DNA of 64,000 nt from Methyloversatilis sp. RAC08 (lineage in GTDB: Bacteria; Pseudomonadota; Gammaproteobacteria; Burkholderiales; Rhodocyclaceae): assembly GCF_001713355.1 (NCBI RefSeq), contig NZ_CP016448.1, positions 2,852,001 through 2,916,000 on the forward strand, given 5' to 3'. Under the pieces are notes generated by a model that was given only the letters and a program-made list of their open reading frames with translations, was not told the origin of the DNA and made no database searches. This document shows, piece after piece, positions 39,767 through 64,000 of the stretch (within the stretch, counting starts at the first letter, position 1; every line of letters begins with the position of its first letter). The position numbers were made by a program, and so were the translations under genes.

Positions 39767-40132
39767 ATGGCAAAGACTGTGCTTGCAATTGACGATTCGG
39801 CGTCGATCCGCCAGATGGTGGCGTTCACCCTGAAAAGCTCCGGCTACGACGTGATCGAAGCGGTGGACGGACAGGACGGCCTGGACAAGGCGAAGTCGAA
39901 ATCGGTCAACCTCGTGCTGACCGACCAGAACATGCCGCGCATGGACGGACTGACGCTGATCCGCAATCTGCGCAGCCTGGCGCAGTACAAGGCGACGCCG
40001 ATCCTGATGCTGACCACCGAATCGTCCGATGCGATGAAGGCACAGGGCCGTGCCGCCGGCGCGACCGGCTGGCTGGTCAAGCCCTTCGACCCGCAGAAGC
40101 TGGTCGAGGTGGTGAAAAAAGTGATCGGCTGA
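39767..40132 (+). CDS. cheY: Chemotaxis response regulator CheY (first copy)
   Basis: 121 residues, a single receiver domain, with GAAGGAG upstream. Conserved residues: AIDDSASIRQM (acidic pair), acceptor Asp in VLTDQNMPRMDG (residue 53), Thr in LMLTTESS, and Lys in WLVKPFDP. It is of the CheY type found beside cheA in Betaproteobacteria and differs from the second CheY at 60957. Which of the two binds the FliM switch is not clear; this one probably takes phosphate from the adjacent CheA. Confidence 0.92.
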   Translation: MAKTVLAIDDSASIRQMVAFTLKSSGYDVIEAVDGQDGLDKAKSKSVNLVLTDQNMPRMDGLTLIRNLRSLAQYKATPILMLTTESSDAMKAQGRAAGATGWLVKPFDPQKLVEVVKKVIG

Positions 40133-40175: not shown

Positions 40176-41930
40176 ATGACCATGGACCTGAGCCAGTTCT
40201 ACCAGGTGTTCTTCGAAGAGGCCGCGGAACACCTGTCGAACATGGAACAGATGCTGCTCGACATCGATCTCGACAGCATCGATGACGAAGAGATGAATGC
40301 GATCTTCCGCGCCGCCCACTCGATCAAGGGCAGCGCCGGCACCTTCGGCTTCAACGACCTCGCGCAGGTCACGCACGAGCTCGAAACCCTGCTCGATCGC
40401 GTGCGCAAGCACGAAGTCGTCATGACGCCTGCCATGGTCAATGCGTCACTCGAAGCCGGCGATCTGCTGCGCGATCTGGTGGCGGCACACCGTGGCATCG
40501 GCGACGCCGATCTGCAGCGTGTGGCGCAGGTATGCGCCGCGCTCAAGGCCCTGTACTCCGAGGCAGTTGAGCCGGCAGGCGCGCCCGATGCAGCAACGCC
40601 GCCGCCAGACGAATCAACCTTCCGCTTCAGCTTTCTGCTCTCTTCCGACCAGGCCGACGTAGCCGGCGTGATCGAGAACCTTGCTCGCGAGGCCGGGGCA
40701 CTCGGTCGCCGCCTGCTTGACCTTTCCCTGGGAGCGGACGGGCGCTGGCACGGCGTGTTCGAGGGGCGAGTCGACGCTGAGGCACTGCGCGAGCTGGTCG
40801 ATTTCGTCGCGGTCTCCGACAGCTTCGCGATGACCGTACCGGACGCCGATGCCGATGCCGACGATGCTTACGGCTTGTTCGATGCAATGCCCGAATCATC
40901 GGTCGAGGGGGATGCCGCGTGGGGTCTGTTCGACGAGGCGTCGCCGGTCGCGGCAAACGCGGTCGATGACAGTTTCGGATTGTTCGACGCCGTTCCCGTT
41001 GCGCTGACAGCCGACAACGACCAGGCGGGCGATCCCTCCTACGGTTTCTTCGATCCGCCGCCTGCCGCGCAGGCTGTCATCGACACGCCGGGCGAGGCTG
41101 CGGGATTGTCGATCGTGTCACCGGTCGCCGCAACGCCGGTGGAGTCTGCAGTCAATGCACCGGTAGAGGCATCGAGCGACTCCCCCAAGGCTGCAGCGCC
41201 GCGTAATGCGAAGCCCGCCGCAGCAGCCGAGACGTCGATACGCGTCGGCGTGGACAAGGTCGACCAGATCATCAATCTGGTCGGCGAACTCGTGATCACG
41301 CAGGCCATGCTGATGTCGGCCGCGTCGAAACTCGACCCGGTCGAGTTCGAACGCCTGATGAGCGGCGTGCAGCAGCTCGAACGCAATACGCGCGACCTGC
41401 AGGAATCGGTGATGTCGATCCGCATGCTGCCGATGTCCACCGTGTTCTCGCGCTTTCCGCGCGTCGTGCGCGACCTGTCGCAGAAGCTGGGCAAGAAGGT
41501 CAGGCTCGTACTGGCGGGTGAATCGACCGAACTCGACAAGGGGCTGATCGAACGCATCGCCGATCCGCTGACCCATCTCGTGCGCAACAGTCTTGACCAT
41601 GGTGTCGAGACGCCCGAGGTAAGGGCGGCGCGCGGCAAGCCGGAAGAAGGCACGATCACGCTGAAGGCCTCACATCAGGGCGGCAACATCGTCATCGAAG
41701 TCGGTGATGACGGTGCCGGCCTCAGTCGTGACCGCATCCTGTCCAAGGCGCGTGAGCGCGGGCTGGCGGTGAGCGATTCGATGACTGACCAGGACGTGTG
41801 GGCGCTGATCTTCGAACCGGGTTTCTCGACCGCCGATCAGGTGACCGAGGTGTCGGGGCGCGGCGTCGGCATGGATGTCGTCAAGCGAAACATTTCGGCG
41901 ATGGGTGGCCGCGTCGACATCGATCGATGA
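40176..41930 (+). CDS. cheA: Chemotaxis histidine kinase CheA, N-terminal part ending at a frame change
   Basis: 584 residues. P1 domain with phosphoacceptor His-48 in AAHSIKGSAGTFGF. The linker holds four [YWF]G[LF]FD repeats at residues 232, 249, 267 and 289. P3 dimerisation starts IRVGVDKVDQIINLVGELVI near 349, and P4 kinase follows with N box HLVRNSLDHGVETPE near 470, G1 VGDDGAGLSR and G2-like GRGVGMDVVKRNI. The frame then stops with VDIDR at 41930, within the last strands of P4, while the missing part continues in another frame from 41927. As read, it cannot bind CheW through P5. It is either a disrupted cheA, a sequence error, or the first half of a two-chain kinase. Confidence 0.88.
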   Translation: MTMDLSQFYQVFFEEAAEHLSNMEQMLLDIDLDSIDDEEMNAIFRAAHSIKGSAGTFGFNDLAQVTHELETLLDRVRKHEVVMTPAMVNASLEAGDLLRDLVAAHRGIGDADLQRVAQVCAALKALYSEAVEPAGAPDAATPPPDESTFRFSFLLSSDQADVAGVIENLAREAGALGRRLLDLSLGADGRWHGVFEGRVDAEALRELVDFVAVSDSFAMTVPDADADADDAYGLFDAMPESSVEGDAAWGLFDEASPVAANAVDDSFGLFDAVPVALTADNDQAGDPSYGFFDPPPAAQAVIDTPGEAAGLSIVSPVAATPVESAVNAPVEASSDSPKAAAPRNAKPAAAAETSIRVGVDKVDQIINLVGELVITQAMLMSAASKLDPVEFERLMSGVQQLERNTRDLQESVMSIRMLPMSTVFSRFPRVVRDLSQKLGKKVRLVLAGESTELDKGLIERIADPLTHLVRNSLDHGVETPEVRAARGKPEEGTITLKASHQGGNIVIEVGDDGAGLSRDRILSKARERGLAVSDSMTDQDVWALIFEPGFSTADQVTEVSGRGVGMDVVKRNISAMGGRVDIDR

Positions 41931-42406
41931 CCGGCGTCGGCACGCGCATGACGGTACGTCTGCCGCTGACGCTCGCCATCCTCGACGGCATGTCGGTGGC
42001 CGTCGGCGACGAAACCTACATCATCCCGCTGAACTACGTTGTCGAGTCGCTTCAGCCGGCTGCCGACATGATCAAGAGCATCGGTGGCATGCCTCGCCTG
42101 GTACAGGTGCGCAACGAGTTTCTGAACATCCTGACGCTGCGCGATGCCTTCGGCCTGGCCGGCGGAACGACCGATCTGGAGCGCGGCATTCTTGTCGTGC
42201 TCGAATCCGACGGCGACAAGATTGCATTGTTCGTCGATGCCCTGGTCGGCCAGCACCAGGTCGTCATCAAGAGCCTGGAAGCCAATTACCGCAAGGTGGT
42301 GGGCATCTCCGGTGCAACCATCATGGGCGACGGGCACGTCGGACTGATCCTTGACGTGCAGGCGCTGGTCGAAACGGCCCGCGTCGGCATGGCGGTGGCC
42401 GCTTAG
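41927..42406 (+). CDS. cheA: CheA C-terminal part: last P4 strand and P5 (CheW-like) domain
   Basis: 159 residues from an ATG that overlaps the preceding TGA (ATGA at 41927-41930). It starts MTGVGTRMTVRLPLTLAILDG, which is the normal continuation of CheA after the G2 region, then runs through a complete P5 domain (VAVGDETYIIPLNYVVESLQP, LVQVRNEFLNILTLRDAF, ALFVDALVGQHQVVIKSLEANY, ISGATIMGDGHVGLILDVQAL). Inserting one base, or one more ATCG unit, near 41918-41926 would rejoin the two frames. No separate ribosome site is clear; if translated it would need re-initiation or frameshifting. Confidence 0.82.
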   Translation: MTGVGTRMTVRLPLTLAILDGMSVAVGDETYIIPLNYVVESLQPAADMIKSIGGMPRLVQVRNEFLNILTLRDAFGLAGGTTDLERGILVVLESDGDKIALFVDALVGQHQVVIKSLEANYRKVVGISGATIMGDGHVGLILDVQALVETARVGMAVAA

Positions 42407-42587: not shown

Positions 42588-42618
42588 AGCAAAAGTGATA
42601 GACGCTGCGGAGCACGCA

Positions 42619-43128
42619 ATGACCCAACTGGCGCGATCAGCGCACCCGAAACAAAGCGGTACCGTCGATGGCGGTTACTCCCAGGAATTCCTGACCTTCA
42701 CGCTCGGTGGTGAAGAATACGCCATCGACATTCTCAAGGTGCAGGAGATCCGTGGCTACGATGCGGTCACAGGCATTGCCCACTCCCCGCCTTTCATCAA
42801 GGGCGTCATCAATCTGCGCGGCATCATCGTTCCGATCGTCGATCTGCGGATCAAGTTCGGTGTCGGTGTCGTCGACTACACACCCTTTACCGTCACGATC
42901 ATCCTGAATGTCGGCGGTCGAGTCGTCGGCATCGTGGTCGATGCCGTGTCCGACGTGCTGTCGCTCGATCCTGCGCAACTGTGCGAGCCGCCGGAATTCG
43001 CTTCCAGCCTGGATACCCGCTACATCCAGTCCCTCGGCTCGATCGATGACCGCATGCTCATCGTTGTCGATATCGAAAAGCTGATGCTTTCGGCCGACAT
43101 GGCGCTTGTCGAAAACCCTCTGCACTGA
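42619..43128 (+). CDS. cheW: Chemotaxis coupling protein CheW
   Basis: 169 residues from ATG at 42619, with GGAG 8 nt upstream. It is a single CheW domain: [25 protein letters not shown] near 24, [20 protein letters not shown] near 63, [14 protein letters not shown] near 104 and [11 protein letters not shown] near 150. It links receptors to CheA. The next gene, an MCP, starts 8 bp after its stop. Confidence 0.95.
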
Positions 43129-48438: not shown

Positions 48439-48531
48439 AGAACCGGGTGACCGCCGGCACACAAGAGTTCAAAAGATGCGCTCGTGCGCATTCCCGCAAT
48501 CAGAACTGAATAGAAAACCATGGAACTCTGT

Positions 48532-49536
48532 ATGAAGCAATTCGCGGTTGTGATCACGGCGGCACTTTGCGTGTCGGTATTCGCCCCGGCAATGGCCGCT
48601 GACCTGCAGGCCCAGAAGGATCTGTACCGCAGGCCGCAGGTGATTCCGTTCCCGGCCGACAATCCGTACACGATCGAGAAGGCGGCGCTGGGCAAGATGC
48701 TTTTCTTCGAAGCCCGTCTGTCACGCGACAACAATCTGAGCTGTGTGAGTTGCCACAATCCATCGTTCGGCTGGCAGGTTCCTTTCGCCAAGGCGATCGG
48801 TGCGGGCGGAAAGCCGCTGACGCGCAAATCGCCGACGACGATCAATCACGCATGGGGCAACACCTTCTTCTGGGATGGCCGCGCAGGGAGCCTCGAAGCC
48901 CAGGCGCGCGGGCCGATCGAGGCGCCGGCCGAAATGGACCTTCCGATGTCCGTCGCCGTCAAGCGGCTGAATGAAATCGAAGGCTACAGGCTCGCCTTCC
49001 AGAAGGCATTTCCGGACACGGGCCTGACCGAAGACAGTGTGCTCAAGGCCCTCGCAACCTACGAACGCACCATCGTGACCGGCGATACGCCGTTTGATCG
49101 CTGGGTGCGCGGCGACGAGAAAGCCATTTCGGCGTCGGCGATCCGCGGCTTTGCCTTGTTCAACGGCAAGGCGCGCTGCGCAACCTGTCATTCCGGATGG
49201 AATTTTTCGGACGAGAAATTCCACGATATCGGTCTTCGTTCTGCGGACACCGGACGCGGCGGCGTCACTGGCAACCCGGGCGACATGCACGCCACCCGGA
49301 CACCCGGGCTGCGGGAAATCGTCGCGCGCGCGCCGTACATGCACGACGGCAGCCTGGACACTCTGGAAGGTGTGCTCGCGCACTACATCTCGGGTGGCAT
49401 GGCCAGACCCACGCGCTCGCCGTTGATGCAACCGCTGCAGCTGGACGGAGAAGAGTTCGCCGATCTGCTGAGCTTCATGCGCACCCTGAGCAGCCCGGGC
49501 AATGTCGTTGCCATGCCCAACCTTCCGGCCCGCTGA
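48532..49536 (+). CDS. Di-haem cytochrome c peroxidase (CcpA/MauG family)
   Basis: 334 residues from ATG at 48532 (ATG at 48520 is in frame); the signal peptide is [20 protein letters not shown]. Two haem c sites, CVSCH near residue 70 and CATCH near 220, give the low- and high-potential haems. Conserved [24 protein letters not shown] and [19 protein letters not shown] are typical of bacterial periplasmic peroxidases that reduce H2O2 to water with electrons from small cytochromes. It lies in line between two MCP genes (81 and 25 bp gaps counted from the in-frame ATG at 48520), an unusual place for this enzyme. It may tune local peroxide levels sensed by the neighbouring receptors, but that is inference. 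Confidence 0.93.
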
Positions 49537-51835: not shown

Positions 51836-52735
51836 GTGATTCAGGCAGGCAGGAATGCAGCAAGTGCAGTCGAAGTGACCCGGCAACTGGCGGATTCAAG
51901 GTCGCTGACCGGCGGAACGCGCGAGTTTTCCTTCACGCGCGACGATTTCGACCGCATCGCAAAACTGATACACCAGCATGCCGGCATTTCGCTGTCGCCG
52001 ATCAAGTTCGACATGGTCTACAGCCGGTTGGCACGCAGGCTTCGTGCCACGGGTGATGCGACCTTCGCTGACTATCTGAAGCGGCTGGAGCGTAATGATC
52101 ACACCGAGTGGGAAACCTTCGTCAATTCACTGACGACCAACCTCACGTCATTCTTCCGCGAAGCGCATCACTTCGACCTGCTGAAGGAACATCTGACCCG
52201 GCTCGGCAAGCCGACGGCCCGCATCTGGTGCAGCGCAGCCTCCACCGGAGAGGAGCCGTACTCGCTGGCCATCACGTGCTGCGAACTGTACGGTTCGATG
52301 AACCCGCCGGTGGAAATCATTGCGACGGACATCGATACCCAGGTGCTGGCGCAGGCCCAGGCCGGTGTCTATACCGAAGACCGTATCGAAAAGCTGTCGC
52401 CCGAACTGGTGCGCAAGTATTTCCTGCGTGGAACCGGCGCTCGCGCCGGCGAGGTGCGAGTGCGCCCCGAACTGCAGAAGCTCATCCGTTTCACCCGCGT
52501 CAACCTGCTCGAGCCGAACTGGCCGATTCGCGGGCCGCTCGAGGCGATCTTCTGCCGCAACGTGATGATCTATTTCGACAAGCCGACGCAGTACGCCATC
52601 CTGAAGCGTTTCGTCCCGCTGCTGCGCCCGGAAGGGCTCATGTACGCCGGGCATTCGGAAAGCTTTTCGCACGCAGTCGATCTGTTCCGCAATCTCGGAA
52701 GGACGGTTTATGGTCGTGCTGACGGCGGTCGATAG
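51836..52735 (+). CDS. cheR: Chemotaxis protein methyltransferase CheR
   Basis: 299 residues from GTG at 51836, with GAGAGG upstream. It methylates receptor glutamates with SAM. N-terminal helical domain to about residue 90, then the catalytic domain: LTTNLTSFFREAHHFDLL near 99, RIWCSAASTGEEPYSLAI (SAM loop) near 129, IIATDIDTQVL near 160, and IFCRNVMIYFDKPTQ near 237. The beta-subdomain that grips receptor pentapeptides is present, fitting the EWEEF tails of the upstream MCPs. cheD starts within its last 26 bases. Confidence 0.95.
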   Translation: MIQAGRNAASAVEVTRQLADSRSLTGGTREFSFTRDDFDRIAKLIHQHAGISLSPIKFDMVYSRLARRLRATGDATFADYLKRLERNDHTEWETFVNSLTTNLTSFFREAHHFDLLKEHLTRLGKPTARIWCSAASTGEEPYSLAITCCELYGSMNPPVEIIATDIDTQVLAQAQAGVYTEDRIEKLSPELVRKYFLRGTGARAGEVRVRPELQKLIRFTRVNLLEPNWPIRGPLEAIFCRNVMIYFDKPTQYAILKRFVPLLRPEGLMYAGHSESFSHAVDLFRNLGRTVYGRADGGR

Positions 52736-53339
52736 TCGCGGTCCTTCCCTGATCGAACACCAGTCGACGCAGCGCTATTTCGACAGCAAATTTTCGCGCG
52801 AGGCGGTGAAGATCCTGCCCGGCGAATTTTTCGTGACGACACGCGACATGCTGCTGGTGACGGTTCTGGGTTCGTGCGTAGCCGCCTGCATCCGCGACCC
52901 GGAACGCGGCATCGGTGGCATGAATCATTTCATGCTGCCCGACGGCGGCACCGAGGCGACCAGTCGTTCGGCGCGCTACGGCGGGTATGCGATGGAACTG
53001 CTGGTCAATGAACTGATCAAGTCGGGTGCCCGGCGCTCGGCGCTCGAAGCCAAGGTGTTCGGCGGCGGGCGCGTGATGGCGTCGCTGTCTAGCGCCAATG
53101 TCGGCGAGCGCAATTCGTCCTTCGTGCTCGATTACCTTAAGCAGGAAGGCATTCCGGTCATCGCGCAGGACCTGCAGGAACAGCACGCGCGCAAGATCTA
53201 CTTCTTTCCGCGTGTCGGTCGGGTGCTGGTGAAGAAGCTCGCACGCGTCAATAACGATACGCTGGCGCGGCGCGAGCGCGAGTATCAGGAGCGGCTTGCA
53301 CGCACGGATGCGTCGGGCGATATCGAGCTGTTCTCGTGA
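52710..53339 (+). CDS. cheD: Chemoreceptor glutamine deamidase CheD
   Basis: 209 residues from ATG at 52710, overlapping cheR by 26 bp, with AAGGA upstream. It deamidates receptor glutamines. Catalytic Cys lies in TVLGSCVAACIRD near residue 56 and His in GIGGMNHFMLP near 73; KVFGGGRVM and NVGERNSSFV are also typical. The C-terminal extension of about 30 residues is charged. Confidence 0.94.
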   Translation: MVVLTAVDSRGPSLIEHQSTQRYFDSKFSREAVKILPGEFFVTTRDMLLVTVLGSCVAACIRDPERGIGGMNHFMLPDGGTEATSRSARYGGYAMELLVNELIKSGARRSALEAKVFGGGRVMASLSSANVGERNSSFVLDYLKQEGIPVIAQDLQEQHARKIYFFPRVGRVLVKKLARVNNDTLARREREYQERLARTDASGDIELFS

Positions 53340-53352
53340 CCGGGCTACGCTG

Positions 53353-54432
53353 ATGAATACGTCAAAGATCAGGGTGCTGGTGGTGGACGATTCCGCGGTC
53401 ATGCGGGCCATGCTGACCGCAATCATCAATCAGGCGCCCGACATGGAAGTGGTGGGTACGGCACCCGATCCGCTGGTGGCGCGCCAGAAGGTGAAGGAAC
53501 TTCTGCCGGACGTGCTGACGCTGGATGTCGAGATGCCGCAGATGAACGGTCTTGAGTTTCTCGACAAGGTGATGCGCCTGCGCCCGATGCCGGTGATCAT
53601 GATCTCCAGCCAGACCGCGCAGGGGTCCGAAGCGACGCTGCAGGCGCTCGAACTGGGCGCGGTGGACTACATCGCCAAGCCGCGTGCCACCCTCGCGGGT
53701 CTGCCGCCAGGCTATGCACAGGAGGTGCAGGACAAGATCCGTGCGGCATTCAGCGCTCATGTGAGGGTGCGGCGCGACGCGCCTTTGCGTCCTGCGACCA
53801 CTGCCGTGACACCACCGCCGGTGGTGAGCAGCAACTGGGGTGACCGCATCGTGTGCATCGGCGCCTCGACCGGCGGCACCGAAGCGATCAAGGAGGTGCT
53901 GACCCGCCTGCCGGAGAACATGCCCGGCGTCGTGATGGTGCAGCACATGCCGGAAATGTTCACCGCGAGCTTTGCCCGGCGGCTCGACTCGCTGTCACGC
54001 CTGCGCGTGAAGGAGGCTGAGCAGGGCGAACGCATACTGCCCGGTCACGCCTACCTCGCACCGGGGCATTCGCACCTGGAAATCCGCAAGTCCGGCGGTG
54101 GCTATGTGTGCGAACTGCTGCAGACGCCACCCTTCAACCGGCACCGCCCGGCGGTCGATGTCCTCTTCGATTCCGCAGCGGTGCAGGCGCGAGGCAGTGC
54201 GGTTGCCGCGCTGCTCACCGGCATGGGCAAGGACGGCGCGCAGGGCATGCTGGCGATGCGCAAGTCGGGCGCGTGGACGATAGGTCAGGACCAGGAAAGC
54301 TGTGTCGTGTACGGAATGCCGCGCGAGGCGGCCCAGATCGGCGCGTGCTGCGAGGTCAGTCCGATCACTCAGGTTGCCGAACGCATCATGGCTGCGCTGC
54401 AGGGCGGTCGGCGCATGGTCGCCCACGGCTGA
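53353..54432 (+). CDS. cheB: Chemotaxis protein-glutamate methylesterase CheB
   Basis: 359 residues from ATG at 53353. Receiver domain (RVLVVDDSAVMRAML; acceptor Asp in LTLDVEMPQMNG near residue 57; KPR) joined by a proline linker to the esterase, with triad Ser in IGASTGGTEA near 176, His in VMVQHMPE near 203 and Asp in GMGKDGAQGM near 297. It removes methyl groups from receptors when phosphorylated by CheA. Confidence 0.95.
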   Translation: MNTSKIRVLVVDDSAVMRAMLTAIINQAPDMEVVGTAPDPLVARQKVKELLPDVLTLDVEMPQMNGLEFLDKVMRLRPMPVIMISSQTAQGSEATLQALELGAVDYIAKPRATLAGLPPGYAQEVQDKIRAAFSAHVRVRRDAPLRPATTAVTPPPVVSSNWGDRIVCIGASTGGTEAIKEVLTRLPENMPGVVMVQHMPEMFTASFARRLDSLSRLRVKEAEQGERILPGHAYLAPGHSHLEIRKSGGGYVCELLQTPPFNRHRPAVDVLFDSAAVQARGSAVAALLTGMGKDGAQGMLAMRKSGAWTIGQDQESCVVYGMPREAAQIGACCEVSPITQVAERIMAALQGGRRMVAHG

Positions 54433-58928: not shown

Positions 58929-58955
58929 TCAAGACTTGCCATGCATTGCCGTAAA
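58929..58955 (+). promoter_or_regulatory. Sigma-28 (FliA) promoter of the cheV-cheV-cheY-cheZ-cheA set
   Basis: TCAAGACT, 11 bases, GCCGTAAA. Spacing is exact and the GCCG core is present. It lies 53 bp before cheV at 59008. Confidence 0.75.
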
Positions 58956-59007
58956 ACCATCTGCACCCGGTTGTTTTCGTGCCACTGAACAGACAGACGA
59001 GGCCGAC

Positions 59008-59979
59008 ATGTCAGAGTTACTCAAGAATATCGATGCCCGCACCAAGCTTGCGGGTACCAACAAGCTCGAAATACTGATGTTTTCGCTCGGCGTGGACACG
59101 CGCACCGGGCGACGCGAGACATTCGGCATCAATGTGTTCAAGGTGCGCGAGGTGATGCGCACCCCCAACATCACGGCAGCGCCGGAAATGCCCAATGCGG
59201 TCGAAGGCATGGTCAGCCTGCGCGGTGCGCTGGTACCGGTGGTCGATCTGGCCAAGTTTGCCCAGTTCCCGAGCGATACGCCGCGCGACGTGATGATCGT
59301 GACCGAATACAACGGCCATACCCAGGGCTTCCTGGTGGAGTCGGTCGATACCATCCTGCGGCTGGACTGGTCGCAGATGCGCGTGCCGCCGGCCATGCTG
59401 ACAGCCAATCTCGGCGGACTGGTGACTGCCGTGACCGAGCTGGCGGACAACCGGCTGGTGATGATGCTCGACGTCGAGAAGATCCTGTCGGAAACGGCGG
59501 ACATCGACAACGATCTCGCCTTCAAGGACATCAAGCCGCTCGACATCGAAGACGCAACGGTCTTCTTCTGCGATGACTCCCCGGTGGCCCGCACCCAGAT
59601 CACGCGCACGCTGGACCTGATGGGTGTGCGCTACGTCAGCGCCATCAATGGCGGCCAGATGTGGGCCGAACTGCTGAAGGTTGCCAGCTACGCCGATTCC
59701 AGCGGCCGCAAGGTGAATGAACTGATCAGCATGATCCTCACCGACGTCGAGATGCCGGAGATGGACGGCTACATCCTGACCAAGAACATCAAGGCCGACC
59801 CGCGCTTCGCCGGCATTCCGGTGGTCATGCACTCGTCGTTGTCGTCGGGCTCCAACCAGCAGCTGGGCCGATCGGTTGGCGTCGATGAGTATGTGTCCAA
59901 GTTCGAGGCACAGCGCCTCGCCGAAACCATCACCCGCCTGATCCGCCGCAGCAAGGGCTTGGATCGCGTGGCTGCCTGA
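59008..59979 (+). CDS. cheV: Chemotaxis protein CheV (first of two)
   Basis: 323 residues from ATG at 59008, with GAGG upstream. The CheW-like domain spans residues 15-165 (FGINVFKVREVMRTPNITAAPEMP, GMVSLRGALVPVVDL, GFLVESVDTILRLDWSQ). The receiver domain starts near 185 (VFFCDDSPVARTQI) with acceptor Asp in MILTDVEMPEMDGYIL and MHSSLSSGSNQ. CheV couples receptors to CheA and can act as a phosphate sink or adaptation switch. The second cheV follows after 20 bp. Confidence 0.94.
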   Translation: MSELLKNIDARTKLAGTNKLEILMFSLGVDTRTGRRETFGINVFKVREVMRTPNITAAPEMPNAVEGMVSLRGALVPVVDLAKFAQFPSDTPRDVMIVTEYNGHTQGFLVESVDTILRLDWSQMRVPPAMLTANLGGLVTAVTELADNRLVMMLDVEKILSETADIDNDLAFKDIKPLDIEDATVFFCDDSPVARTQITRTLDLMGVRYVSAINGGQMWAELLKVASYADSSGRKVNELISMILTDVEMPEMDGYILTKNIKADPRFAGIPVVMHSSLSSGSNQQLGRSVGVDEYVSKFEAQRLAETITRLIRRSKGLDRVAA

Positions 59980-59999
59980 AAAAGACCGGAGACAACACG

Positions 60000-60944
60000 A
60001 TGGACAGACCTGACCACAACCTGCTCGAGCAGGTGGACGCCCGCACCAAGCTGGCGGGCTCGAACAAGATGGAAATCCTGCTCTTTTCACTCGGCACGCA
60101 CGAGCTGTTCGGCATCAATGTATTCAAGGTGCGCGAGGTCAGCAGCACGCCGATCGTAACGCCGACGCCGAATATGCCGGCTGGCGTCGAAGGTCTGATT
60201 TCACTGCGCGGAAACGTCATTCCGGTGCTGTCGCTGGCACGCATCATGAACCTGACCGACGCACCCGAGGGCATGGGTGGCGCAATGATGGTGACCGAGT
60301 ACAGCAAGCGTACGCTGGGTTTTCTGGTGCACGAGGTGGATCGCATCATCCGTGTCGACTGGGATCGCGTGCGCGCGCCCGAGTCGGTCGTCACCAGTGA
60401 GCAGCTCTACATCACCGCGATCACCGAACTCGACGATGGTCGGCTGGTGTCCATCCTCGACGTGGAAAGCATTCTGGCCGGTACCTTCGGCGACGCCGTC
60501 GTCGGCGAGATTCCGCCGCTGGGCGGCAATTACGATCCGAACGTGTTCTTCGTCGATGACTCTGCGGTGGCCCGCAAGAAGATCGCCGAAGTGCTGGACA
60601 AGCTCAACATCCGCCACAAGCACGCCACCAATGGCGCCGAGGCGTGGGCTCGCCTGCAGGGCATGGCTGCGCACACCACGCAGACCGGCCAGCCGCTGAC
60701 CGACGAGATCGACCTGATACTGGTCGATGCAGAAATGCCCGAGATGGACGGCTACGTCCTCACGCGACACATCAAGAACGATCCCCGATTCGTCGATATA
60801 CCGGTGGTGATGCACTCGTCGCTGTCGTCGGAAGCAAACCGTGCAATGGGCAAGAGCGTCGGTGTCGATGCCTACGTGGCGAAGTTCGACGCCGAAGTGC
60901 TGGCCGATACGCTGCGTCCGCTGCTGCAAGCCCATAAAGCCTGA
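60000..60944 (+). CDS. cheV: Chemotaxis protein CheV (second of two)
   Basis: 314 residues. It is a paralogue of the preceding gene with the same order: a CheW-like domain (FGINVFKVREVSSTPIVTPTPNMP, GLISLRGNVIPVLSL, GFLVHEVDRIIRVDWDRV) and a receiver (VFFVDDSAVARKKI; acceptor in LILVDAEMPEMDGYVL; MHSSLSSEANR). The two share DARTKLAGxNKxEIL at the N-terminus. Tandem cheV genes suggest that different receptors use different adaptors. Confidence 0.94.
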   Translation: MDRPDHNLLEQVDARTKLAGSNKMEILLFSLGTHELFGINVFKVREVSSTPIVTPTPNMPAGVEGLISLRGNVIPVLSLARIMNLTDAPEGMGGAMMVTEYSKRTLGFLVHEVDRIIRVDWDRVRAPESVVTSEQLYITAITELDDGRLVSILDVESILAGTFGDAVVGEIPPLGGNYDPNVFFVDDSAVARKKIAEVLDKLNIRHKHATNGAEAWARLQGMAAHTTQTGQPLTDEIDLILVDAEMPEMDGYVLTRHIKNDPRFVDIPVVMHSSLSSEANRAMGKSVGVDAYVAKFDAEVLADTLRPLLQAHKA

Positions 60945-62361: not shown

Positions 62362-64000
62362 ATGAGTGACTTTCAGGGCATGGAAGATCTGCTGCAGGAC
62401 TTTCTGGTCGAAGCAACCGACCTGCTGTCCGGCGTGGACAACAAGCTGGTCGATCTCGAAAAGACGCCTGGTGACCGCAGTCTGCTGAACGAGATTTTTC
62501 GCGGCTTCCATACCATCAAGGGGGGCGCCGGCTTCCTGAATGCGTCCGAACTGGTCGCGCTCTGTCATCTGACCGAAAACCTGTTCGACAAACTGCGCAA
62601 TGGCGAAATGGCCATCACGCCGCAACTGATGGACGTCATTCTCGACGCGACCGGCATCGTGCGCGACATGTTCGGTGCCCTGGAGCGCGGCATGCTGCCG
62701 GCAGCCGCCGACGTTGGCGTGATGACCCGCCTGCGCGCCGCACTGGCCGGCGAGCTCGACAAGGTCGCAACGGCGGACGCCAGTGCCGAAGCACCGGCTG
62801 CGCCGGCCGTCGCACGTGGCGTCGAACCTGACTGGAACACGCTGCATCAGGCCGTGACCGGTGTCGTGCCGGTTGCCCCGCAAGCGGTGCCTGAACCTGC
62901 AGCCGCGCGATCGGCCAATGATGGCGAGGTCGCTGCGGTGGTCAATGCGGCTTTCGGCCGCCGGTCCGCTGATCGTCCGGGCGCACCGGCACCGACCGGT
63001 CGCCGCGATGCCGAAAAGGGCCGTGAAAACTCGATCCGGGTCGATACTTCGCGCCTCGACCAGGTGCTCAACCTGTCGGGCGAGATCGGCCTGACCAAGA
63101 ATCGCCTGACCTCGCTGCGCGCGGACATCCTGGCCGGCAAGAGCGACAACGAAACACTGCATGCGCTCGATGCGGCCGTGAGCCAGCTCGACCTGCTGGT
63201 GTCCGATCTGCAGAACGCGGTGATGAAGACGCGCATGCAGCCGATCGGTCGCCTGTTCCAGAAATACCCGCGCATCGCCCGCGATCTCGCCCGCAATCTG
63301 GGCAAGGACGTCGAGCTTGCGCTGGTCGGCGAAGAAACCGAAATCGACAAGACGATGATCGAGGATCTGTCCGACCCGATCATCCACCTGATCCGCAATG
63401 CCGTGGATCACGGCGTGGAAACGCCGGAAGACCGGATCGCCCAGGGCAAGCCGGGCAAATCGGTGGTGCGTCTCGAAGCGCGCCAGGAAGGCGACCACAT
63501 CGTGATCATGGTGGCCGACGACGGGCGCGGCATGAACGCCGAGCGGCTGCGTGCCAAGGCGCTCGAAAAGGGCCTGATCACCGATGAGGAAGCCAATACG
63601 CTGGACGAGCGTGCAAGCCTGAACCTGGTGTTCCTGCCGGGCTTCTCGACCGCAGCAACGGTGTCCGATGTGTCGGGTCGTGGTGTCGGCATGGACGTCG
63701 TGAAAACGAATATCCAGAAGCTCAACGGTTCGATCGAAATCCGGTCCATCCAGGGCAAGGGCACGACCTTCGTGATTTCGCTGCCGCTGACGCTGGCCAT
63801 CCTGCCGGTGTTGCTGGTGCGTCTGGCCGAACAGCACTTCGCGGTGCCGCTGTCGATGGTGCGCGAAATCCTGCCGATCCAGCCGCAGGATATCCAGGAA
63901 GTCGGTGGCCGCGCGACCATGGTGGTGCGCGGCGAAGTGATGCCGGTGCTGCCGCTGGCCCGCCTGCTTGGCTGGCCGCAGAAGAACCTGCCGCAGTACG
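62362..64000 (+). CDS. cheA: Chemotaxis histidine kinase CheA (second copy, C-terminus outside window)
   Basis: I translated this frame by hand; it is open to the window end (546 codons), starting at ATG 62362 with AGGAG upstream. P1 has the phosphoacceptor His-50 in GFHTIKGGAGFLNASELV. After a short linker with no separate P2 evident, P3 starts NSIRVDTSRLDQVLNLSGEIGL near 225. P4 shows HLIRNAVDHGVETPE (N box), VADDGRGMN (G1) and GRGVGMDVVKTNI. P5 begins ILPVLLVRLAEQHFAVPLS and is cut off. Unlike the first cheA, the P4-P5 junction (IQGKGTTFVISLPLTLAIL) is in frame. It lies 153 bp after cheZ in a gap with no visible promoter or terminator. Confidence 0.95.
   Translation, partial: MSDFQGMEDLLQDFLVEATDLLSGVDNKLVDLEKTPGDRSLLNEIFRGFHTIKGGAGFLNASELVALCHLTENLFDKLRNGEMAITPQLMDVILDATGIVRDMFGALERGMLPAAADVGVMTRLRAALAGELDKVATADASAEAPAAPAVARGVEPDWNTLHQAVTGVVPVAPQAVPEPAAARSANDGEVAAVVNAAFGRRSADRPGAPAPTGRRDAEKGRENSIRVDTSRLDQVLNLSGEIGLTKNRLTSLRADILAGKSDNETLHALDAAVSQLDLLVSDLQNAVMKTRMQPIGRLFQKYPRIARDLARNLGKDVELALVGEETEIDKTMIEDLSDPIIHLIRNAVDHGVETPEDRIAQGKPGKSVVRLEARQEGDHIVIMVADDGRGMNAERLRAKALEKGLITDEEANTLDERASLNLVFLPGFSTAATVSDVSGRGVGMDVVKTNIQKLNGSIEIRSIQGKGTTFVISLPLTLAILPVLLVRLAEQHFAVPLSMVREILPIQPQDIQEVGGRATMVVRGEVMPVLPLARLLGWPQKNLPQY

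What the first reader, a model, noticed from the sequence alone, without database searches (positions are those of the whole stretch)
40176..42406. cheA split into two overlapping frames at an ATGA inside the P4 domain
The kinase frame stops at 41930 right after VDIDR, and the normal continuation (GVGTRMTVRLPLTLAI and all of P5) runs in another frame from an ATG at 41927 that overlaps the stop. The break is not at a domain boundary: the last P4 strand is in the second frame. That favours a one-base loss or a sequence error. But ATGA is also a classic re-initiation signal, and the site lies in a short ATCGATCGAT repeat where one more ATCG unit would also restore the frame. Either this system has a real two-chain CheA with a free CheW-like P5, or an off/on switch, or a dead cheA backed by the second cheA at 62362.
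Basis: partly seen in the sequence, partly recalled or inferred. Interest (0 to 1): 0.75.

Follow-up and report, generated by a model that had tools for sequence, protein, structure and literature searches.

The report
Chemotaxis kinase gene with one-base break
One of the chemotaxis kinase genes of an environmental bacterium is broken in this genome record by a single missing base, while the relatives examined carry the gene whole; this looks like an ordinary recent mutation or a sequencing slip, not a new kind of two-part kinase.

Summary
The contig length, 3,937,190 bp, equals that printed for Methyloversatilis sp. RAC08, a PacBio-only 305x assembly. The split looks private: 109 of 109 other loci run unbroken through the junction, and in an order-wide search 32 of 33 matching genomes span it, the exception being this one. 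The ATGA is inherited: close congeners read the same ATG-ACC as in-frame codons, and the window is one base shorter just before it. The four closest congeners lack the ATCGATCG repeat, so it is a product of the loss. P5 is strongly constrained (28 synonymous, 1 non-synonymous codon differences from the nearest relative), so the break is very recent or not real. No other clear frameshift turned up among 329 compared ORFs; four candidates stay unresolved. Best reading: a recent disabling one-base loss (0.6) or a consensus error (0.34). A working two-chain CheA is unlikely (0.04).

The parts
40176..41930 (+). cheA (first copy) 5' part: P1 (Hpt), linker/P2 region, P3 (dimerisation), P4 up to the second-last strand; ends at TGA 41928-41930
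   Evidence: 581-583 residues align to intact homologues in the best matches
41927..42406 (+). cheA 3' part in another frame: last P4 strand and P5 (CheW-like), 159 codons plus stop
   Evidence: 99.4% identical to the relative's residues 582-741
41919..41928 (+). ATCGATCGAT run at the junction; absent from the four closest congeners, arises from the one-base loss
39767..40132 (+). cheY-like response regulator upstream of cheA
42595..43128 (+). cheW downstream, open
51836..54432 (+). cheR, cheD, cheB of the same cluster
62362..64000 (+). second cheA (Hpt, H-kinase_dim, HATPase_c, CheW), open frame 668 aa continuing past the window

Best explanation
The first cheA of the flagellar chemotaxis cluster (flhDC-motAB-mcp-cheY-cheA-cheW-mcp...cheR-cheD-cheB) carries a one-base loss in the last part of P4. 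Translation ends at the TGA that the shift exposes in the conserved Met-Thr codons (ATG ACC), giving a kinase without its last P4 strand and without P5, which should neither fold a working ATP domain nor join receptor arrays. I think it most likely a genuine, very recent loss of function in this isolate, which came from a laboratory-kept algal coculture, with the second, intact cheA at 62362 remaining. Shown: the split, its absence from the relatives examined, and the constraint on P5. Inferred: that the base is missing in the living strain and that the product is dead.
For: 32 of 33 matching genomes of an order-wide junction search span it in one frame. Codon comparison shows one base fewer in the window and the same ATG ACC in frame in close congeners. 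This is the one clear frameshift among 187 + 142 compared ORFs of the nearest relative, four further candidates unresolved. 305x PacBio coverage. The site is not a long homopolymer in congeners. A search listing (PMC11556028, start of abstract) calls the genus non-motile, which would relax the need for cheA, although FlhA and flagellin genes are present and open here.
Against: The gene shows no other decay near the break: 28 synonymous to 1 non-synonymous codon differences in the P5 part and 34 to 2 in the last 232 codons before it; on the RAC08 branch 12 to 1 and 12 to 0. A sequence error explains this equally well. The assembly is from a single technology whose residual errors are mainly one-base indels (recalled). 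No reads or second strain were available.
Confidence: 0.6

Rival explanations
1. Consensus error: the living strain has a whole cheA and the assembly lost one base.
For: Seen in this record only; purifying selection on both parts; single-technology PacBio/HGAP assembly.
Against: 305x coverage; no second clear frameshift among 329 compared ORFs, four unresolved; site is not a long homopolymer.
Confidence: 0.34
2. A working two-chain CheA: ribosomes re-initiate at the ATGA and make P1-P3-P4 short of its last strand plus a free strand-P5 chain that complement each other.
For: ATGA overlap is a usual re-initiation arrangement (recalled); P5 is constrained; an ATGA within 6 nt of the loss is expected for only 431 of 20731 simulated losses.
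Against: No relative examined has it; the ATG is an ordinary Met codon in close congeners; the cut is between two strands of P4, not between domains; no Shine-Dalgarno-like stretch seen by eye upstream of 41927.
Confidence: 0.04
3. A reversible on/off switch by slippage in the ATCG repeat, or programmed frameshifting at the site.
For: ATCGATCGAT at 41919-41928.
Against: The repeat does not exist in the four closest congeners; it has only 2.5 units and is one of 106 tetranucleotide runs of 10 nt or more in 304 kb; no -1 slippery heptamer seen by eye; not conserved.
Confidence: 0.02

Closest known systems
Canonical single-chain CheA of flagellar chemotaxis clusters (solved chains 6s1k_A, 8c5v_A; recalled to be E. 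coli)
   Same: Domain order P1-P3-P4-P5, relatives' sequence matches the solved chains across the junction, cluster gene content
   Different: One base short in late P4, so two frames
Split kinase CheA3/CheA4 of Rhodobacter sphaeroides (PMC3591291, passages read)
   Same: A CheA whose activities lie on more than one chain
   Different: There the split is by whole domains and both chains bind the cluster through their own P5 domains; here the cut is inside P4 and seen only in one genome
Frameshifted bacterial pseudogenes (general knowledge)
   Same: Private one-base indel, flanks still well conserved
   Different: None seen

Membership tests
CheA, single chain (class II histidine kinase) | P1 Hpt, P3 and P4 domains | tested here: met
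   Hpt, H-kinase_dim, HATPase_c over cut-off; HATPase_c stops at profile 93 of 111
CheA, single chain (class II histidine kinase) | P4 complete and P5 in the same frame | tested here: not met
   TGA at 41928-41930; P5 in another frame; 109 of 109 other loci run in one frame through the junction
Split CheA (CheA3/CheA4 type) | Split between whole domains, each chain with its own P5 | tested here: not met
   Cut lies between two strands of P4; P5 on one piece only
Translationally coupled gene pair | Overlapping stop/start ATGA | tested here: met
   41927-41930
Translationally coupled gene pair | Arrangement conserved in relatives | tested here: not met
   0 of 109 other loci, 0 of 32 other genomes matching
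Phase-variable repeat switch | Repeat tract present in related strains and varying in length | tested here: not met
   No ATCGATCG at the site in 4 of 4 closest congeners; short tract, ordinary density
Phase-variable repeat switch | Both alleles in one population | not testable with these tools
   No reads
Pseudogene by frameshift | Intact orthologues in relatives, indel private to the strain | tested here: met
Pseudogene by frameshift | Indel present in the living strain's DNA | not testable with these tools
   No second assembly or reads held

The most novel reading that the evidence does not exclude
A newborn two-chain CheA in which re-initiation at ATGA supplies the last P4 strand plus P5 as a separate chain that complements the truncated kinase in trans, giving a receptor-array adaptor that can exchange independently of the kinase.
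Probability: 0.04. Interest if true: 0.6.

Novelty: already known. Interest (0 to 1): 0.12.

Why it matters
As found it is an ordinary frameshift and matters mainly as a caution: a gene caller working on this record would see a truncated CheA and an orphan CheW-like protein here. If the loss is real, RAC08 is a natural test of what the second CheA can do without the first.

Tried and rejected
Repeat-slippage switch: rejected, since the four closest congeners lack the repeat. Split at this junction elsewhere: none found among the loci and matches examined. Copies in viral contigs: none confirmed (P0001 as query).

Other frameshifts in this genome. One search gave three candidates; two fall away (an upstream extension of cheR, and an antisense ORF over the gap between two conserved genes), leaving cheA. 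One search gave six. One search looked at five of them: two are ORFs antisense to, or spanning the gap between, well-conserved ORFs; three stayed unresolved (a repeat-like ORF at about G000:C1:704500-706000; a 205-aa ORF of the relative with no Pfam match; and a DUF2141 gene whose first 37 or so residues lie in different frames in the two genomes though each has an open frame with a start). The sixth, 82 aa and without a Pfam match, was not examined further. The reverse comparisons (own ORFs against the relative) gave six candidates in each; I did not follow them up except where overlapped them. The ORF sets are greedy picks of long ORFs and include some that are not genes.

Literature: in the listings I saw nothing on this gene in RAC08 beyond the genome announcement. 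The second structure job and the fold searches were not used.

Full report
Observation. The kinase frame 40176-41930 encodes 584 residues ending GGRVDIDR, and the homologous continuation runs from ATG 41927 to 42406 in another frame. Pfam finds Hpt, H-kinase_dim and an incomplete HATPase_c in the first frame and CheW in the second. The nearest relative's intact protein (94% identical over the first part) has all four in one chain. In an AlphaFold model of that relative's P4-P5 (mean pLDDT 80.8, pTM 0.57) the break sits at the end of strand 144-150, before strand 154-162, so the cut is inside P4. Solved CheA chains (6s1k, 8c5v) align with the relative straight through this place.

Source. The window is 2852001-2916000 of a single 3,937,190-base contig. 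That length is the one printed for Methyloversatilis sp. RAC08, CP016448, in PMC5095461 (whole text read). The strain was isolated from a laboratory-kept haptophyte coculture and sequenced with PacBio only, HGAP 2.2.0, 305-fold coverage. The locus that matches the nearest relative's protein at 100% is from Methyloversatilis sp. XJ19-49. The identification rests on the equal length and on the genus of that relative.

Context. The cluster reads flhD, flhC, motA, motB, a receptor, cheY, cheA, cheW, two receptors, a di-haem cytochrome c peroxidase gene, a receptor, cheR, cheD, cheB, a STAS protein, two receptors, two CheW-receiver (CheV-like) genes, a cheY-like gene, cheZ and a second cheA. Nine CheW-domain places exist in the genome, among them the P5 of the broken cheA, of the second cheA (668 aa) and of two further CheA-like frames of 842 and 1901 aa. 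FlhA (one match) and flagellin (three matches) genes are present and open. In G001 a similar pair of cheA matches lies 21 kb apart.

Relatives. Of 61 genomes searched, 56 including this one had a match. The best 30 matches became loci, and 80 more came from genome contigs (best 80 of 531 confirmed). Apart from the window's own locus, 109 of 109 run in one frame from the P4 motif GVGMDV through the junction into P5 (recounted). At least five of these are the same contig fetched twice, by equal contig length (L002/L031, L012/L034, L017/L049, L018/L053, L029/L046). The second set was ranked by match to an intact query and so leans towards intact genes. A separate search with a 150-residue junction query over 300 genomes of the order gave 33 genomes with a match at E 1e-55 or better; 32 span the junction and only this genome starts at residue 50. 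That strict threshold also favours unsplit genes, and the other 267 genomes say nothing.

What changed. In the four closest congeners (L002-L005) the codons read ATY GAY TCG ATG ACC GGY GTC in frame. The window has the same ATG ACC but one base fewer just before it. So the ATGA is an inherited Met-Thr codon pair, and the ATCGATCGAT run is made by the loss: the word ATCGATCG is at the site in the window and in none of those four. Tetranucleotide runs of at least 10 nt are common (106 in 304 kb of this genome), and that exact 10-mer occurs 3 times there. Removing one base at each position of ten congeners' cheA genes in silico, 3525 of 20731 losses end at an ATGA, and 431 of 20731 (2.1%) at an ATGA within 6 nt. 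The last figure is low but is chosen after the fact.

Age. Against the nearest relative the P5 part has 28 synonymous and 1 non-synonymous codon differences in 159 codons, dN 0.006, dS 0.26; the last 232 codons before the break have 34 and 2, dN 0.004, dS 0.23; the whole upstream part, with its variable linker, has 88 and 36 in 579 codons. Polarised with three congeners, the window's branch has 12 synonymous and 1 non-synonymous in P5 and 12 and 0 in the last 232 codons before it. Constraint therefore held until very recently. This fits a new mutation, a sequence error, or a P5 still in use.

Error or mutation. I compared collinear stretches with the nearest relative: 187 of 218 ORFs and 142 of 155 ORFs of that relative had a match of at least 80% identity in the sampled stretches of this genome. 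cheA was the only clear frameshift. Two of the three candidates and two of the six are spurious ORFs over gaps between conserved genes or upstream extensions. Four of the six stay unresolved: a repeat-like ORF, a 205-aa ORF without Pfam match, the N-terminal end of a DUF2141 gene, and an 82-aa ORF. The sampled record is thus not rich in indels, which with 305x coverage leans to a real mutation. It cannot settle the matter.

Verdict. A one-base loss, real (0.6) or in the record only (0.34), in an otherwise normal cheA. A two-chain CheA (0.04) or a switch (0.02) has no comparative support. Split CheA proteins are known (R. sphaeroides CheA3/CheA4; PMC3591291, passages; PMC6829392, start of abstract only), but they divide between whole domains.

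Noticed in passing
48520-49536: A di-haem cytochrome c peroxidase (MauG-like) gene sits inside the chemotaxis cluster and overlaps the start of the next receptor ORF (49502).
   Followed up: no
58936-60944: Two tandem CheV-like genes (CheW plus receiver) precede a cheY-like gene, cheZ and the second cheA.
   Followed up: no
L002, L003, L004, L005 (downstream of cheA): In the four closest draft congeners the contig ends within about 3 kb downstream of cheA, perhaps because the following receptor genes are repeated sequence.
   Followed up: no
G000:C1 about 704500-706000 (within L158-L159): A repeat-like ORF differs in length and frame from the relative's copy and has no Pfam match in the relative; nature unresolved.
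   Followed up: partly
G000:C1 about 1698333-1698938 (within L149): A DUF2141 gene whose first 37 or so residues lie in different frames in this genome and in the nearest relative.
   Followed up: partly
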